This document shows positions 55,019-60,670 of a stretch of DNA of 64,000 nucleotides, one piece after another. The stretch is taken from the IMG/VR virus record IMGVR_UViG_3300037840_000216, positions 20,468 through 84,467 of that record; one strand, 5' to 3'. This stretch comes from a virus. Numbering within the stretch: the stretch's first letter is position 1; each line of letters begins with the position of its first letter. A program made the translations under genes and the position numbers. A model generated the notes under the pieces. The model made no database searches and was not told the DNA's origin. It saw nothing but the letters and a program-made list of their open reading frames with translations.

Positions 55019-55474
55019 ATGCGCGCATTGGATTTGACAGGACATGTATATGGACGATTGACCGTGTTACGGCGGGCTCCGAATCAAGGACAATTTACAG
55101 TTTGGATGTGTCAATGCGATTGCGGAAACGAGACCGTTGTGCGCTCTAACGATCTCCGTACTGGTAACACAAAGAGTTGTGGCTGCAAACAATACGATGG
55201 TCTTCGTAATGACAACGGTTATAGACATGGTTGGTATGGAACGCCCACTTGCGTTACTTGGAAAGCTATGAAGCAACGTTGTAATTATCCCAATCACCGT
55301 AGTTATTCGCACTATGGAGGACGCGACATCAAAGTCTGCGAACGTTGGAACGACTTCGAGAACTTTTTGACCGACATGGGCGAGCGTCCAGAGGGTCATT
55401 CGATTAGTCGAGCCGACCACGACGGGGACTACTGCCCTGAGAACTGTTCGTGGGCTTTAGAAGGCACCCATTAG
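55019..55474 (+). CDS. Phage HNH-type homing endonuclease, C-terminally short
   Basis: 151 residues. Matches the widespread phage family with LTGHVYGRLTVLRRAP, CQCDCGNETVVRSNDLRTGN, SCGC, then RCNYPNHRSYSHYGGRDIKV and SRADHDGDYCPENCSWA, which hold the zinc site and catalytic H-N-H residues. The usual C-terminal continuation after WA is missing; the protein ends LEGTH. Leaderless start. Independent selfish gene within the head region. Confidence 0.8.
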   Translation: MRALDLTGHVYGRLTVLRRAPNQGQFTVWMCQCDCGNETVVRSNDLRTGNTKSCGCKQYDGLRNDNGYRHGWYGTPTCVTWKAMKQRCNYPNHRSYSHYGGRDIKVCERWNDFENFLTDMGERPEGHSISRADHDGDYCPENCSWALEGTH

Positions 55475-55493: not shown

Positions 55494-55522
55494 TTGACAT
55501 ACGCTACGCGATGCCGTAGACT
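55494..55522 (+). promoter_or_regulatory. Consensus sigma-70-like promoter, leaderless type
   Basis: TTGACA, exact 17-nt spacer, TAGACT, ending 7 nt before the ATG at 55530. Confidence 0.75.
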
Positions 55523-55529
55523 ACGGAGC

Positions 55530-55924
55530 ATGAAAAAATACTGAAGTTCTTTGCCTGGTGGTTCATTGGAGGCGTGGTACTGATCGTAATCATCGCCATC
55601 GTCGCATCCAGCGGAAGTAGTTCAAGCAGCACCAGCACAACCGTCGTGCCAGAAACATCGCCGCAAACATCATCAAATCATGTCTCTACGCCAGTAACAC
55701 CTAAACACTACAGCGGTAATGGTGGAGAGAACCTTGGCACCATCACGATATCTTCGTCCGCCACGTTGAAATGGACGAACGACGGTGGGTTGTTCTCTAT
55801 CATCACGAGCGAAGGCGTTTCCGTCAATTCACAAGCGAGTAGCGGTTCGTCAGTTCTCGAAGCGGGGACTTACCACGAATTCCAAGTCAACGCAGTAGGC
55901 AACTGGACAATCACTATCGAATAG
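55530..55924 (+). CDS. Membrane-anchored extracellular protein, frame broken at A6 near the start
   Basis: The ATG placed 7 nt after a consensus promoter opens MKK then a stop. Adding one A to the A6 run gives MKKILKFFAWWFIGGVVLIV and then IAIVASSG, an ideal membrane anchor fused in frame to the long ORF (Ser/Thr linker, then NLGTITISSSATLKWTNDGG and a domain ending GNWTITIE). So the gene requires a -1 slip at AAAAAA, or the sequence lacks one base, or translation starts at GTG 55574 without the N-terminal part. The C-terminal beta domain resembles small domains of actinobacterial secreted proteins. Confidence covers the gene, not the mechanism. Confidence 0.65.
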
Positions 55925-56018: not shown

Positions 56019-58364
56019 TTACGCAAAGAGGGCAGAATCAGCAACATCCTCGGTTACTGACTCGGACTCCGACTCATCACTGGCGATTACGCTATCGAAT
56101 CGCTTGGTCGAAGCAGTGACCTTGCCAAACGCGCCCGGCATGCGTGTTACGCCTGCTGTACGCTGAGCAGCAAGCTTCTTGGTGCCCGCTGTCTTGACGC
56201 GAGAGAGCATGTCCATCTGGGCCTGAATCTCCTCGTCACTCTGCGGCGATAGCTCTGCTAGGCGCTCGTACTTGGCATCTTTCTCGATTAGACCGAGATC
56301 AACTTCCATATCAGCAAGCTTGAGCGAGGCGACGAAGTGCGAAGTGAACCCATCGAACTGCATGTCGCTGACCTCGCGGGTAACCGGCTCCTGCTGGCGA
56401 TAGATCTTGTTGCCATCTGTGCCAGTCCACTGACTCGTCGGCCCAGAGTTGTTCTCCGGTGTGCTTGCAGGTGAAAGGACATCGACGCGATCCTGAGCTT
56501 TCCCTACCGGGTCAGAAGGCTCCGTGCCTTTGTTAGCAGACCCGCCAGAGAGTCCCGGCTGGTCGTAGAACGGCTTCGAGTCGTACGCCTGGCGGACAGA
56601 TGAATCCTTGTTCTGGTTGCCTTCAAGGCTCTCCGTCGTAACCTCATCCGTGAGCCCTTTCTGGGTACCGTCTGAATCACCGAAGGTCTTGGTCGGTCCG
56701 CTGTCCTCTGTCGTTTTGGTCGCGTCAAATCCTGAGTCGTCAGATGTCTCCGATGCCGTAGGTAGACTCTCCGTTTTGTCAGCGCCTACGTCTGTGACGC
56801 CGGTTGAACCTACGCCGGTAACGTCTACTTGTGCGTCGGCTGTTGATGCTGCCTCGTTACTTGGCTCAATGACCCCACCGACGCCAGTAACATCGACTCG
56901 CGCGTCAGGCGAAGCCTCCGGGCCAGTAGGACCATCAGCGGTATGTGTGGTGCCCATGGTGTCTCCTGTTTGGTTGTGCTTGGCTGCCTCGATGAGGTCT
57001 TGCGCTGTCCGCATGGCTGCGGTGACCGGCTTCTTGGGGCTCTTGGTCACAACTACCTCCTGCGGATCGTTGGACGCAGGCGTCGATCCGGGTAGCAACG
57101 GCTTTTCAAATTGCTTGATTCGGGCCGCTACCTTTGGGTTTAGCTTTGGTTGCCAACGCATGTCACTAGTTATTTGCGCGGATGCACCCCGATTTCTAGT
57201 CTGTAGGAAGCTACCCGGTTGCTTAGCGTGTGCGGCCGGTCCTCCTGGAGGCGGCATCGGCTGTCCTTCACCGCCCGGTATAGGCTGCGGCTGTGCTCCC
57301 TGTGCCTCGGCGTTGTCCTGCTGGATCTGCTGCTCGCTGCCCTGGGCCATATCGCCCTGTAGCTCTTTGGCCTTGGTAAGGTCAGGATTGTCCATGCCCT
57401 TCGGTGGCTCAACATATCCACACACATCACATGTCTCGCCATCCATGTTCTCACCACAGATCGGGCATGAATGCTCTTGGCGCATAGTATCTATTTGTTC
57501 AGGGGCAGTCGTCTCAAAAGACTGAGGCAGCGGGTTCTCTGCTGTCTTGGTTAGACCCTCGTTCTCGACGCTGGCGCGGATTTCACGAGCAAGCGCTGTC
57601 TCGTCGGCGGGGTCAAACACGCCGCTGATCTCGAAGAAGTGAATGCCGTAGCAGTTCTCGTAGCTCTTGCGCGAGATGCGTTTGCCATCGGCGGTCTTGT
57701 AGTCGTGGTGCGCGCCCTTCATCAAGATGTGAGAGCAGTACTCGTCAGGGTTGGTTGCAATATGGCCGCAATGTGAACACTTGGACTCACGAACGTCGCA
57801 TCCCATCGAGAACCCATCTAGGTCGCCATTGCGCACAGCCTTGGCGTATTTGGGGAACTGCTTGGCGTCGATCTCAAGGAGCAACTCGATCTCGGTCGGC
57901 GGGGCGTGCTCTGGGTCTAGGCTCGCGCCAGTCCAGTAGTCATCTCCAGAGGCCGCAACCTTCTCGATCGGAAGCACGCGAAGCTTGCTGTCCACGACAA
58001 CGCCGCGTGAACGGCTAGGGTCCGAGTTGTTGTGGTCGATGAAGTTGGGCTTGCCCATGAAAGTGGCGAAGCCGAACCTCTGGTTGCCCTCCGCAGCCTC
58101 TACGGTGAAGCCTGATGATGATTGCCTGGCGTGGCGCTCGAAGATCTCGGGTCCGCCCGCAAGCTCCACAGACGGCCAGCCGTCGTTGTTCTTGTTGACG
58201 CGCGATGAGATCGCACGCAGACGGACGTACATATAGCCGTCGTCGGTGCGGTATTGATGAAAATCTGATAGGCTCTGGAGCGAAGCTGTATGTGATCTAG
58301 TCGGCGAGCCCTTGACCTCCAAGACCTGAGCGTCCTCAAACGTTGCGTACTTTGTGAAAGCCAT
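56019..58364 (-). CDS. Prohead protease with zinc ribbons and scaffold-like tail
   Basis: 781 residues from MAFTKYATFED. The N-terminal 230 residues resemble capsid maturation proteases: FIDHNNSDPSRSRGVVVDSKL (catalytic-type His) and GDLDGFSMGCDV (catalytic-type Ser). Zinc-binding pairs follow: CSHCGH with C-x-H (about 205-222) and CPICGENMDGETCDVCGY (about 315-332). The long C-terminal half is acidic, Gln/Pro-rich and low complexity with three DVTGVG repeats, like an internal scaffold that is cut up during maturation. AGAG and AGG precede the ATG. Confidence 0.65.
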   Translation of the reverse strand: MAFTKYATFEDAQVLEVKGSPTRSHTASLQSLSDFHQYRTDDGYMYVRLRAISSRVNKNNDGWPSVELAGGPEIFERHARQSSSGFTVEAAEGNQRFGFATFMGKPNFIDHNNSDPSRSRGVVVDSKLRVLPIEKVAASGDDYWTGASLDPEHAPPTEIELLLEIDAKQFPKYAKAVRNGDLDGFSMGCDVRESKCSHCGHIATNPDEYCSHILMKGAHHDYKTADGKRISRKSYENCYGIHFFEISGVFDPADETALAREIRASVENEGLTKTAENPLPQSFETTAPEQIDTMRQEHSCPICGENMDGETCDVCGYVEPPKGMDNPDLTKAKELQGDMAQGSEQQIQQDNAEAQGAQPQPIPGGEGQPMPPPGGPAAHAKQPGSFLQTRNRGASAQITSDMRWQPKLNPKVAARIKQFEKPLLPGSTPASNDPQEVVVTKSPKKPVTAAMRTAQDLIEAAKHNQTGDTMGTTHTADGPTGPEASPDARVDVTGVGGVIEPSNEAASTADAQVDVTGVGSTGVTDVGADKTESLPTASETSDDSGFDATKTTEDSGPTKTFGDSDGTQKGLTDEVTTESLEGNQNKDSSVRQAYDSKPFYDQPGLSGGSANKGTEPSDPVGKAQDRVDVLSPASTPENNSGPTSQWTGTDGNKIYRQQEPVTREVSDMQFDGFTSHFVASLKLADMEVDLGLIEKDAKYERLAELSPQSDEEIQAQMDMLSRVKTAGTKKLAAQRTAGVTRMPGAFGKVTASTKRFDSVIASDESESESVTEDVADSALFA

Positions 58365-58374
58365 CCTAACTCTT

Positions 58375-58974
58375 ATGCCGCAGAACCCTCTCACTTGCAA
58401 GCTATGCGATCAACCACGTAAGCCCCGTACAGCCGAACCCGGTCGGTTCTTTACGCTCTGCGTCGATCATTTTGCTGAATACAAAAAACAAAAGGATCGC
58501 GAATACTATCTTCGTACCAAAGCCAAGCGTATCCAAATAGCCTCTGATTGGAACAAAACGCACCCTGAAAGGCATCGGACTCATCAAAAGGCTTACGAGG
58601 CAAAGCCTGAGTACGAGGCATACCAACGACAATACTATCGCAACAACAAAGATCAAATCGTTACAAGGGTAGGGGAATGGGCGAAAGAAAATCGTGATAA
58701 GACGAGGGCCGGTAATCGTCGCTACGTTTCGCGCAAGCGATCATCGGGCGGCAGATATACCGAGGAGCAGCTACAGGCGCGCATCAACTTCTATGGGCGA
58801 CGCTGCTACTTGTGCGGGTGCGATTGGGACGCCCTGCCGCGCGAGCAGAAACACATAGATCATGTCATTCCGGTGAGCCTCGGTGGCACAAACTGGCCAG
58901 CCAATCTTCGGCCTGCGTGTCGTTCTTGCAACCAACGTAAGAGCGCTAGGATGCCGGATCAATTGACCGCCTAG
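58375..58974 (+). CDS. HNH endonuclease, complete
   Basis: 199 residues. N-terminal CKLCDQPRKPR zinc element, a long charged linker, then a full HNH domain: RCYLCGCDW, HIDHVIPVSLGGTNWPANL and LRPACRSCNQRK. The start codon is only 10 nt from the divergent protease start. Probably a free-standing homing endonuclease; its action site might be the neighbouring protease gene. Confidence 0.85.
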   Translation: MPQNPLTCKLCDQPRKPRTAEPGRFFTLCVDHFAEYKKQKDREYYLRTKAKRIQIASDWNKTHPERHRTHQKAYEAKPEYEAYQRQYYRNNKDQIVTRVGEWAKENRDKTRAGNRRYVSRKRSSGGRYTEEQLQARINFYGRRCYLCGCDWDALPREQKHIDHVIPVSLGGTNWPANLRPACRSCNQRKSARMPDQLTA

Positions 58975-58991
58975 AACAAACGTCCAGGCCC

Positions 58992-59020
58992 TTGACGTAG
59001 CTCCTCGGCTGGTGTATCAT
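58992..59020 (+). promoter_or_regulatory. Sigma-70-like promoter, leaderless type
   Basis: TTGACG, exact 17-nt spacer, TATCAT, ending 7 nt before the ATG at 59028. Confidence 0.75.
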
Positions 59021-59027
59021 ATGTAGT

Positions 59028-59582
59028 ATGAAAACTCTACGAAGCATCTCGACTGCCGTTCTGCTTTGTCTCGTCCTGGCGGTTCCCGCCTCAGCGGCTG
59101 AAGTCAACCTGTCCCTCTCAACCACCAGCGTCATCCTCGGAACGCCGGTCACGGCGACTGCATCTGGTGTTGCCACGACCAACTATGGCGTGGCGGTCAT
59201 CAAAGAAGCTCCCTGCACCAAAGACAACGCGACGACCATGGTGCTTGGCGTCAATGAACCAGGTCCTTTCGACCAGACCGTAACGCTCGGCTACTCAACC
59301 GTGGGGACCTACAACGTTTGCGCGGAGATTGATCACTGGACAACGGTCGTCGAGGCCACTCTCACAGTGCTCGCGGTGCCGCTGCCTCCTGCTCCGGCTC
59401 CCGTGGCAGTCGCCCCTGCGCCTACGGCGGTAGTCGCTCCTGTGATTGCGCCGAAGCCGGTCGTCAAACCGTTAACGACGGCACAGAAGCTTCACACGTC
59501 GCTCGTCAAGTGCAAGAAGCAGAAGAACAAGAAGAAGCGCGTGCAGTGCGAACGGTTGGCTAAGAAGAAGTTTCGTCGCTAG
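59028..59582 (+). CDS. Secreted Ig-like protein with host-type Cys/Lys tail
   Basis: 184 residues. A clear signal peptide (MKTLRSISTAVLLCLVLAVP, cleavage near ASA-AE). An Ig-like beta domain with two cysteines follows (Cys at about 63 and 98), then a Pro/Ala/Val-rich linker and a C-terminal KCKKQKNKKKRVQC ending KKKFRR. I associate this last motif with exported proteins of Thermoleophilia-type actinobacteria. It suggests a gene acquired from such a host, perhaps altering the infected cell surface. Leaderless, consensus promoter. Confidence 0.75.
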   Translation: MKTLRSISTAVLLCLVLAVPASAAEVNLSLSTTSVILGTPVTATASGVATTNYGVAVIKEAPCTKDNATTMVLGVNEPGPFDQTVTLGYSTVGTYNVCAEIDHWTTVVEATLTVLAVPLPPAPAPVAVAPAPTAVVAPVIAPKPVVKPLTTAQKLHTSLVKCKKQKNKKKRVQCERLAKKKFRR

Positions 59583-59799
59583 TTAGATCAACCAATAGCT
59601 TCTCAGAATCATATGTAATAGCCTTGAGCGTTTGCTTGCAAGCGCTCTCGCGCCTTTCATCTAGACCCCACGACTCGATCAGGCCGCAAAGACGTCCGCG
59701 TAGACGATTTAGCTCAACATGGATCGCTTTCTCTACATCAAGAAGCCGCGATTCCTCAGAACTGCACTCGCCTTCCTCAAGCTCGTCACGCTTGGGCAT
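59560..59799 (-). CDS. Small helical protein, 79 aa
   Basis: Starts at MPKRDELEEG with AAGGAGG 8 nt upstream (a strong site; longer in-frame upstream sequence is inside the next gene). Charged helical, Leu/Glu/Arg-rich with two Cys. Its 3' end overlaps the convergent secreted-protein gene by 23 nt. Unrecognised. Confidence 0.65.
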   Translation of the reverse strand: MPKRDELEEGECSSEESRLLDVEKAIHVELNRLRGRLCGLIESWGLDERRESACKQTLKAITYDSEKLLVDLTSDETSS

Positions 59800-59812: not shown

Positions 59813-60670
59813 TTAGTAGGCGCTGATGAGAGCTTTGGCAATGCGGTGGCCCGTGCGCTCGTCTGTGTAGACTTGCGCCTGCTTGACTTTGAAGCCAGTA
59901 CCGTATGCGACTTCCTGAAGTTCAGCGTCAACGTCGGCAGCCGAGTAGTGATCGGGGACCCGTTCCTCAACCTCGAAGGTGGCGGTAACGCCAATCAGTC
60001 CCTCCCACGGATGCTGTCCGCCGCGAGCGATGATCGGGTTGACGTGCGAGAAGGCAGGAGCGCCGACTGGAGTCTGTCCAGGAGGAACCTCGCCCGGCTT
60101 CAGTGACTTCTCGTGATGCACCTCTTCAGGTGCGGGGGGTGCGCCTGCCCCTGGAGGACTACCTTCAGGAGGACCCGCTGGAGGTTCTTCTCCCGGCACA
60201 GGACTTTCGCCACCTTCGGTATCAGGAATTCCAAGAGCTACAAGGATCTTCTGTACGGCGTCAAAGAGAGCGTCGATCTTGTGTGACTCTCCGCCCTTCT
60301 CCTTATGCTCACCATCCTTTGGAGGACCCTCGTCGCCGTCTGGCTCAGAGTGATCGCCCGGAGGCCCACCATCGTCAGAATCTCCATCGTCTGGCTTCAC
60401 ATCTTGTGTATCGTCAGGACCCTCACTCTTTGGACCAGGCGCATCATCCGTCTGATCAGCAGGACCTCCGAATGGGTTATCCGCTAGATGCAGAGTTTTA
60501 GATGAATCCGCTACATGGATAGCTGCGACCCAGTGGCCATCCAACTCTTCAACAGTGATATCATCAGCATTCTTGGGAAACTGCGGGCTTGTCTTAGCAG
60601 CCTCAACAGCCGCCTCACGGGTCATTGTTGTGACCTTTGGACCAGTGGCAAAGACTATACTCATGTTCAT
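59813..60670 (-). CDS. Low-complexity head-region protein, 285 aa
   Basis: An N-terminal small domain (PKVTTMTREAAVEAAKTSPQ, VEELDGHWVAAIHVADS) is followed by about 130 residues of Asp/Gly/Pro/Glu-rich low-complexity sequence and a C-terminal structured part (VTATFEVEERVPDHYSAADV, then VYTDERTGHRIAKALI). AGGAG precedes the ATG. The acidic low-complexity middle resembles scaffold or internal head proteins. No catalytic motif. Confidence 0.6.
   Translation of the reverse strand: MNMSIVFATGPKVTTMTREAAVEAAKTSPQFPKNADDITVEELDGHWVAAIHVADSSKTLHLADNPFGGPADQTDDAPGPKSEGPDDTQDVKPDDGDSDDGGPPGDHSEPDGDEGPPKDGEHKEKGGESHKIDALFDAVQKILVALGIPDTEGGESPVPGEEPPAGPPEGSPPGAGAPPAPEEVHHEKSLKPGEVPPGQTPVGAPAFSHVNPIIARGGQHPWEGLIGVTATFEVEERVPDHYSAADVDAELQEVAYGTGFKVKQAQVYTDERTGHRIAKALISAY

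What the first reader, a model, noticed from the sequence alone, without database searches (positions are those of the whole stretch)
59028..59582. Secreted protein carrying a Thermoleophilia-like Cys/Lys tail
The signal peptide, Ig-like domain and KCKK...KKKR..C...KKKF tail match a pattern I associate with exported proteins of Solirubrobacterales. This gives a host clue and suggests phage alteration of the host surface.
Basis: inference. Interest (0 to 1): 0.5.

Follow-up and report, generated by a model that had tools for sequence, protein, structure and literature searches.

The report
Phage protein wearing host's export tail
A soil-type phage encodes a protein with an export signal and a small Lys/Cys tail that our searches found, outside such phages, only in one bacterial order (Solirubrobacterales), mostly on exported proteins; this points to the phage's host and suggests that the phage changes that host's cell surface.

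Summary
ORF 59028-59582 (184 aa) has a signal peptide, an Ig-like domain, a Pro/Ala linker and a Cys/Lys tail predicted as a helical hairpin. A tail profile matched 36 of 201 genomes of the order taken as Solirubrobacterales (up to 20 matches per genome), 0 of 249 Pseudomonadota, 0 of 201 Chloroflexota, and 2 of 396 in the phylum sample, both known from the order. Of 35 bacterial tail ORFs with complete N-termini, 31 have a signal-like start, against 30 of 135 controls. No Pfam or NCBIfam model in the proteins scanned, and no PDB sequence, covers the tail. The phage is a distant Myrna/Bxz1-like myovirus. A syntenic prophage-like block of about 164 kb in a genome of the same order (head protein 74% identical) is an independent host link. 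Five phage alleles occupy one site; in the three closest, both ends are 65-87% identical but the Ig domain 25-38%. One allele keeps the tail alone. The gene opposes the late genes and has its own apparently leaderless promoter. Best reading: a host-derived, surface-displayed phage protein, perhaps for superinfection exclusion. Signal peptide and host link are well supported; export, anchoring and exclusion are inferred.

The parts
59028..59582 (+). Whole gene: signal peptide, Ig-like domain, linker, Cys/Lys tail, 184 aa
   Evidence: further alleles at the same site in other phage contigs
59028..59096 (+). Sec-type signal peptide, aa 1-23
   Evidence: sequence, by eye; 74-87% identical between the three closest alleles, 50-55% to the L057 allele
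59097..59378 (+). Ig-like beta-sandwich, aa 24-117, the most diverged part
   Evidence: AlphaFold2; structural matches; 25-38% identity between the three closest alleles
59379..59474 (+). Pro/Ala/Val-rich linker, aa 118-149
   Evidence: low pLDDT
59475..59579 (+). Cys/Lys helical-hairpin tail, aa 150-184 (C162, C174)
   Evidence: family in the bacterial order; up to 65% identical over 34 aa to a bacterial tail
58992..59020 (+). Promoter-like TTGACG-17-TATCAT, 7 nt before the ATG (leaderless layout)
   Evidence: 1 in window; shuffle mean 0.13, 11 of 100 shuffles reach 1; similar elements in the other four alleles, read by eye
58972..58986 (+). Upstream element TAGAACAA[GA]CGTCCA, shared by four of five alleles
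   Evidence: by eye; at 3 mismatches not more frequent in the window than chance
58354..58974 (+). HNH endonuclease gene directly upstream, possible mobiliser
   Evidence: PHROG HNH/endonuclease VII families; no such ORF at the site in L008
56019..58400 (-). Neighbour: head-maturation-protease-like gene
   Evidence: phrog_18299, phrog_2774
59560..59799 (-). Neighbour: conserved 79-aa gene whose 3' end overlaps the last 23 nt of the tail gene
59813..60670 (-). Neighbour: conserved 285-aa gene used to find relatives

Best explanation
This is a host-derived 'moron' of a Myrna/Bxz1-like contractile phage that infects Solirubrobacterales. Its own sigma-70-like promoter makes an apparently leaderless mRNA, opposite to the late genes. 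The product leaves the cell by Sec. A polybasic two-cysteine helical hairpin, the same C-terminal module that part of the host order puts on its own exported proteins, then holds it in or on the envelope, and the linker displays one Ig-like domain. In the closest alleles the displayed domain has diverged much more than signal peptide and tail, as expected of a surface display whose binding face is under changing selection. The likeliest benefit is to block or alter adsorption of competing phages (superinfection exclusion); a changed host adhesion is possible. Shown: gene, promoter-like layout, architecture, taxon link of the tail, host link by a related prophage. Inferred: export, retention by the tail, superinfection exclusion.
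For: Architecture. Tail family: 36/201 genomes of the order, up to 20 matches each, against 0/249 and 0/201 in two other phyla. Bacterial tails are C-terminal (39 of 41 within 24 aa of the stop) and 31 of 35 proteins have a signal-like start, against 30 of 135 controls, Fisher 5e-13. They end proteins with NHL, fn3, PKD, WD40-like or cupredoxin domains, as a portable module would. Two bacterial proteins, L132 and L135, have the same plan of signal peptide, one Ig-like domain and tail; the phage profile aligns along L132 at hhalign probability 93.9, 23% identity. Five alleles at one site with a diverged middle and better kept ends in the three closest. Host: related prophage-like block in a genome of the order. 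A cluster C mycobacteriophage carries a gene proposed to protect infected cells against superinfection, LRRHood gp44 (PMC3029335, passages read).
Against: No experiment; localisation and function are unknown. L008 keeps only start + tail (36 aa, no signal peptide), which a display role would not explain. Its tail differs from the window's by 11 nonsynonymous and 2 synonymous codons, so the tail is not under strict purifying selection there. The L057 allele is diverged throughout (tail 31%) and its tail was not found by the first profile even at E 10; it is assigned by site and plan. The G212 block and seven of 14 relatives with the flank visible lack the gene, so it is dispensable. How the tail would bind the envelope is unknown, and the two Cys are not obviously placed for a disulfide within the hairpin (from the helix limits; no coordinates seen). 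PADLOC gave no match.
Confidence: 0.55

Rival explanations
1. Secreted but not anchored: the Ig-like domain is released and the cationic tail binds an outside target (DNA, polysaccharide, other cells), acting as a diffusible effector or matrix protein.
For: Signal peptide and Lys/Arg-rich tail; no LPXTG, lipobox or transmembrane segment seen by eye; no curated family covers the tail.
Against: The same tail ends many large, diverse exported proteins of the bacterial order, which fits a retention module better than one effector.
Confidence: 0.2
2. Virion decoration: the Ig-like protein is a structural decoration of capsid or tail, like Ig-like domains on many phage virions.
For: Sits among head genes; Ig-like folds occur in viral structural proteins (BFVD hits).
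Against: Signal peptide; opposite strand to the late genes with its own promoter-like site; absent from seven of 14 relatives; a bacterial exported protein has the same plan.
Confidence: 0.08
3. Passenger cargo: the gene was carried into this site with an HNH element and is drifting without selected function.
For: An HNH gene lies beside it in the window and an HNH-like ORF, by eye, in L050, two of five alleles; L008 has lost signal peptide and Ig domain; high nonsynonymous share in the tail between window and L008.
Against: Open frame, promoter-like layout, signal peptide and tail kept in four full-length alleles; the other three have 75-81% identity to the window in the flanking 793-aa protein.
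Confidence: 0.12
4. The tail similarity is convergence of Lys-rich low-complexity ends, with no host meaning.
For: Short, biased sequence; the exact DNA pattern also hits many out-of-frame places and short frames in other taxa.
Against: Position-specific match LTxAQKL..AL..CKK.K.KKKR..CE..AKK[FY], up to 65% over 34 aa; 0 of 450 genomes in two control phyla with the same profile; prophage link.
Confidence: 0.05

Closest known systems
Proteins with a C-terminal Cys/Lys hairpin in Solirubrobacterales (unnamed here; e.g. L132, L135, L120, L136)
   Same: Signal peptide, extracellular-type domain, same hairpin at the C-terminus; L132 and L135 also have one Ig-like domain with a similar TYxVCAY-type strand
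   Different: From bacterial genomes, often 700-1400 aa with NHL, fn3 or PKD domains; function untested
Ltp-type superinfection exclusion lipoprotein of S. thermophilus phage TP-J34 (PMC3952083, abstract and section list seen)
   Same: Phage-coded, surface-exposed host-cell protein
   Different: Ltp is a lipoprotein of temperate phages; here a type I signal peptide and a cationic hairpin tail; no sequence tie was tested
Myrna/Bxz1-like phages (Ceeclamvirinae, cluster C)
   Same: Head protein about 56% identical; contractile tail genes
   Different: No opposite-strand gene is annotated in the 16.9-kb Myrna stretch seen; named hosts of the head-protein matches are Mycobacterium, Gordonia, Rhodococcus and a few others; cluster C genomes were described in 2011 as lacking an integrase (PMC3029335, passages)
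C-terminal export or sorting modules (LPXTG, PEP-CTERM; recalled)
   Same: Short, multi-copy C-terminal module on diverse exported proteins
   Different: No LPXTG or transmembrane helix seen by eye; no NCBIfam match for the protein

Membership tests
Solirubrobacterales proteins with Cys/Lys hairpin tail | Two Cys about 10-13 residues apart amid KK/KR, helix-loop-helix prediction | tested here: met
   alignment; structure predictions of phage rows
Solirubrobacterales proteins with Cys/Lys hairpin tail | Tail lies at the C-terminus | tested here: met
   phage: last 35 aa; bacteria: 39 of 41 within 24 aa of the stop
Solirubrobacterales proteins with Cys/Lys hairpin tail | N-terminal signal peptide | tested here: met
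   phage by eye; bacteria 31 of 35 by a crude scorer, controls 30 of 135
Solirubrobacterales proteins with Cys/Lys hairpin tail | Located outside the membrane | not testable with these tools
   needs fractionation
Superinfection exclusion proteins | Expression blocks infection by other phages | not testable with these tools
   no experiment; PADLOC and PHROGs name no such family for P0001
LPXTG / PEP-CTERM sorting domains | Motif plus transmembrane helix plus basic end, or an NCBIfam model | tested here: not met
   no hydrophobic segment in the tail by eye; no NCBIfam match for P0001
Ig-like fold | Beta-sandwich matched to solved Ig/fn3-type domains | tested here: met
   VIA-align Z 10.5-10.7, 89-97 residues, rmsd 2.7-3.3 A in the top four rows, e.g. 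6ru5_A and PECAM-1 5gni_B; C3, GH3 and CARDB rows are close, so no narrower class
Myrna/Bxz1-like phages (Ceeclamvirinae) | Homologous major head protein | tested here: met
   213 phage records, best 55.9%; 211 are named for actinobacterial hosts, 2 for Bacillus
Myrna/Bxz1-like phages (Ceeclamvirinae) | Formal membership by whole-genome comparison | not tested
   window is part of an 84,467-base record; identities are low, so it may be a sister group

The most novel reading that the evidence does not exclude
Part of Solirubrobacterales uses an undescribed C-terminal wall-retention module, a cationic two-cysteine helical hairpin, on up to about 20 exported proteins per genome. Phages of this order have captured it as a ready-made anchor for a fast-diversifying Ig-like display, and exchange the displayed domain between a promoter-plus-signal-peptide end and a tail end. 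The tail would thus be both a new export/anchoring signal and a sequence-based host marker for uncultured soil phages.
Probability: 0.35. Interest if true: 0.72.

Novelty: new variant of a known kind. Interest (0 to 1): 0.58.

Why it matters
Solirubrobacterales are common soil bacteria (recalled). None of the 213 phage records that match the head protein is named for this order. A tail that our searches found only in part of one order gives a host call from about 35 residues, here backed by a syntenic prophage-like block. If the tail retains proteins on the wall, it is a new kind of C-terminal anchor without a Pfam or NCBIfam model in our scans, and a phage has turned it into a surface-display device. 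The block also suggests that a Myrna-like lineage can be temperate, whereas cluster C genomes were described as lacking an integrase (PMC3029335, passages).

Tried and rejected
Direct homologue searches with the protein found nothing in viral contigs, phages or plasmids; the four-orthologue profile found only two contigs already known. Relatives came from a tail DNA pattern and from flanking genes. Tetranucleotide correlation: six samples of the order r 0.48-0.56, but Anaerolineae 0.50, Corynebacterium 0.485 and the Myrna stretch 0.555, other controls 0.28-0.43, so it does not discriminate; three control samples were too short and left out (L160, L162, L167). No att repeat was found: of six exact matches of 16-18 bases none was judged convincing. 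The upstream 15-mer is not above chance in the window at 3 mismatches. Rfam: no match. A3 against PDB sequences: no match. An intramolecular disulfide was considered but not claimed.

Limits of the taxon test. The tool names no group: I call the order of G001 Solirubrobacterales, and the two control phyla Pseudomonadota and Chloroflexota, from record titles (L038, L012, L023). The two control-phylum searches held no positive genome; the same profile did find G001 and G017 in the phylum sample. One MAG titled Solirubrobacterales (L025) has no tail match, and 165 of 201 genomes of the order have none. The profile A3 has 22 rows: five phage and 17 bacterial, the latter from seven of the 36 positive genomes (G001, G002, G017, G062, G088, G112, G116); without these, 29 of 194 remain. 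The less trained profile A2 gave 8 of 121. In the pattern scan in-frame matches near a stop in frames of 14-129 aa from other taxa, and L007 (viral, 244-aa frame), were set aside by eye. Of the 40 regions fetched, L125, L138 and L181 gave no tail ORF at the cut-off. Ig-only profile: 6 of 201; G168 and G062 were in training, G160 and G146 show Ig-like copies by eye but no tail, G105 was judged chance, G039 was not resolved.

Full report
WHAT IS THERE. The window is part of an 84,467-base IMG/VR virus record. ORF 59028-59582 (+) encodes 184 aa: a signal peptide (aa 1-23), a domain with two Cys (24-117), a Pro/Ala/Val linker, and a tail ending KCKKQKNKKKRVQCERLAKKKFRR. AlphaFold2 with four orthologues gives an Ig-like sandwich and a helical hairpin (mean pLDDT 72.2); the tail alone folds as a hairpin at mean pLDDT 90.5. 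No model matches the protein in Pfam, NCBIfam or PADLOC; PHROGs gave only E 0.019 and 0.062.

THE PHAGE. PHROGs name a DNA polymerase, UvsX-like recombinase, DnaB-like helicase, tail sheath, baseplate wedge and major head protein, so it is a contractile-tailed phage. The head protein matches 213 phage records, best 55.9% (Phabba, Myrna); by name 211 infect Actinomycetota and two Bacillus. The gene lies on the + strand among minus-strand late genes, between a maturation-protease-like gene with an intervening HNH gene and a conserved 79-aa gene, whose 3' end overlaps its last 23 nt.

FIVE ALLELES AT ONE SITE. The 793-aa flanking protein found 15 loci of relatives; one (L051) does not show the flank. 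Seven of the 14 that do carry the gene (L049, L050, L052, L053, L054, L056, L057). L052, L053 and L057 print the same protein, and L054 shows the same start but is cut; L049 is the L008 contig. In the other seven (L055, L058-L063) none was seen. With the window this makes five alleles. Between the three closest full-length ones (window, L050, L056) the signal peptide is 74-87% identical, the tail 65-74%, the Ig domain 25-38%. The L057 allele is diverged throughout: 50-55%, 31% and 27-30%. The L008 allele is a 36-aa start + tail only. Read by eye, four alleles have TTGAC[AG]-17-TA[TG][CA][AC]T 7 nt before the ATG; L056 has the weaker TTGATA-17-TATGCT at 6 nt. The window's site is the only match to the strict pattern in 64 kb (shuffle mean 0.13; 11 of 100 shuffles reach one). 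Between window and L008 the tail has 11 nonsynonymous and 2 synonymous codon changes, against 48:173 and 42:101 in two neighbours: relaxed or changing selection. The last codons also overlap the neighbour gene, which blurs this count.

THE TAIL FAMILY. An exact DNA pattern with GC-rich codons found 35 loci in 84,980 species genomes. After translation only L024 and L038, both titled as Solirubrobacterales members, carry it in frame near the stop of a long ORF; among 7 viral loci only L008 carries the tail (the loci set aside are told under Tried and rejected). A profile of 22 tails then matched 36 of 201 genomes of the order of L038's genome at E <= 0.001 (11 matches in G001, 20 in G216), 2 of 396 in the phylum sample (G001 and G017, already known from the order), 0 of 249 in the phylum of a Sphingomonas MAG, 0 of 201 in that of a Chloroflexi MAG and 0 of 11 assorted genomes, one of them a MAG titled Solirubrobacterales. 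Seven of the 36 supplied training rows; 29 of the other 194 match. I fetched 40 regions chosen from the hits. Of 41 tail ORFs with a stop in view, 39 have the tail within 24 aa of the stop; of 35 with complete N-termini, 31 have a signal-like start, against 30 of 135 control ORFs by the same crude scorer. Their other domains include NHL, fn3, PKD, WD40-like and cupredoxin; of eight tail proteins, two had no family. Two proteins (L132 in G168, L135 in G062) are signal peptide + one Ig-like domain + tail, like the phage protein.

HOST LINK INDEPENDENT OF THE TAIL. The head protein was sought in 232 genomes of the order; G212 matched at 74%, E 2.7e-175, and G1051 weakly. On G212 contig C5 (602,736 bases) 36 of 47 tested window ORFs have matches between 260 and 380 kb, nearly all in the same order at 311-366 kb; one lies apart at 263 kb. 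The GC content falls to 0.62-0.70 between about 216 and 380 kb, with mostly 0.70-0.77 around it. The block holds 32 tRNA genes and a tmRNA and a tyrosine integrase at its right edge, with LtrA and HbpS-like genes beyond. This looks like an integrated relative of about 164 kb. No tail gene was found in the 260-460 kb searched, and G212 has no tail match even at E <= 1. A chimeric contig is not excluded, no att repeat was found, and the integrase has no match in phage records nor a convincing one in the phage stretches tested.

HOW IT MOST LIKELY WORKS. Shown: gene, promoter-like layout, architecture, taxon link, host link. Inferred: export by Sec, retention by the tail as for the host's own exported proteins, display of the Ig domain, and a benefit such as superinfection exclusion. 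Phage-coded surface lipoproteins of the Ltp type are linked to superinfection exclusion in S. thermophilus (PMC3952083, abstract), and a cluster C phage carries a gene proposed to protect infected cells against superinfection (PMC3029335, passages). That the gene comes and goes, and that L008 has lost the display part, fits an accessory gene.

LITERATURE. Searches for Solirubrobacterales + phage (26 papers, 20 listed), Thermoleophilia + signal peptide + C-terminal (1), Thermoleophilia + phage + host prediction (2), Solirubrobacter + cell wall + surface protein (3) and Solirubrobacter + prophage (11, 10 listed) showed, in the titles and abstract starts listed, nothing on this tail or on such phages. 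One soil study speaks of DNA phages predicted to infect Thermoleophilia (PMC10604447, one passage). Most subscription journals are not in the library.

VERDICT. The surface role is plausible but untested. A portable C-terminal module, limited to one order in our searches and borrowed by a phage, is a new variant of a known kind.

Noticed in passing
window 55494-55924 (+): A second plus-strand unit of similar layout: TTGACA-17-TAGACT, an ATG 7 nt later, and a small membrane-type ORF (P0002). The ATG at 55530 is out of frame with the membrane ORF at a run of six A, so the start is broken or the true start lies elsewhere. Weak PHROG superinfection-exclusion match, E 0.011.
   Followed up: partly
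window 55019-55474 (+) and 58354-58974 (+): Each of the two promoter-led plus-strand genes is directly preceded by an HNH endonuclease gene, suggesting homing-type movement of accessory genes.
   Followed up: partly
L050 5815-6771 (-) and 6815-7390 (-): At the same site a relative carries a further signal-peptide protein with collagen-like GPQG repeats (318 aa from the internal Met) and an HNH-like ORF (by eye) beside the Ig-tail gene.
   Followed up: no
G212:C5 about 216-380 kb (L191-L196, L204-L206): Apparent Myrna-like prophage of about 164 kb with 32 tRNAs, tmRNA and an integrase at its edge, in a genome of the Solirubrobacterales order; cluster C phages were described as lacking an integrase.
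   Followed up: partly
L073, L080 (G017, G116): Bacterial proteins with two tandem copies of the Cys/Lys hairpin at the C-terminus.
   Followed up: no
L138, L139 (G156, G115): GYGYG-rich proteins ending in several Cys/Lys repeats, a possible divergent branch of the tail family.
   Followed up: no
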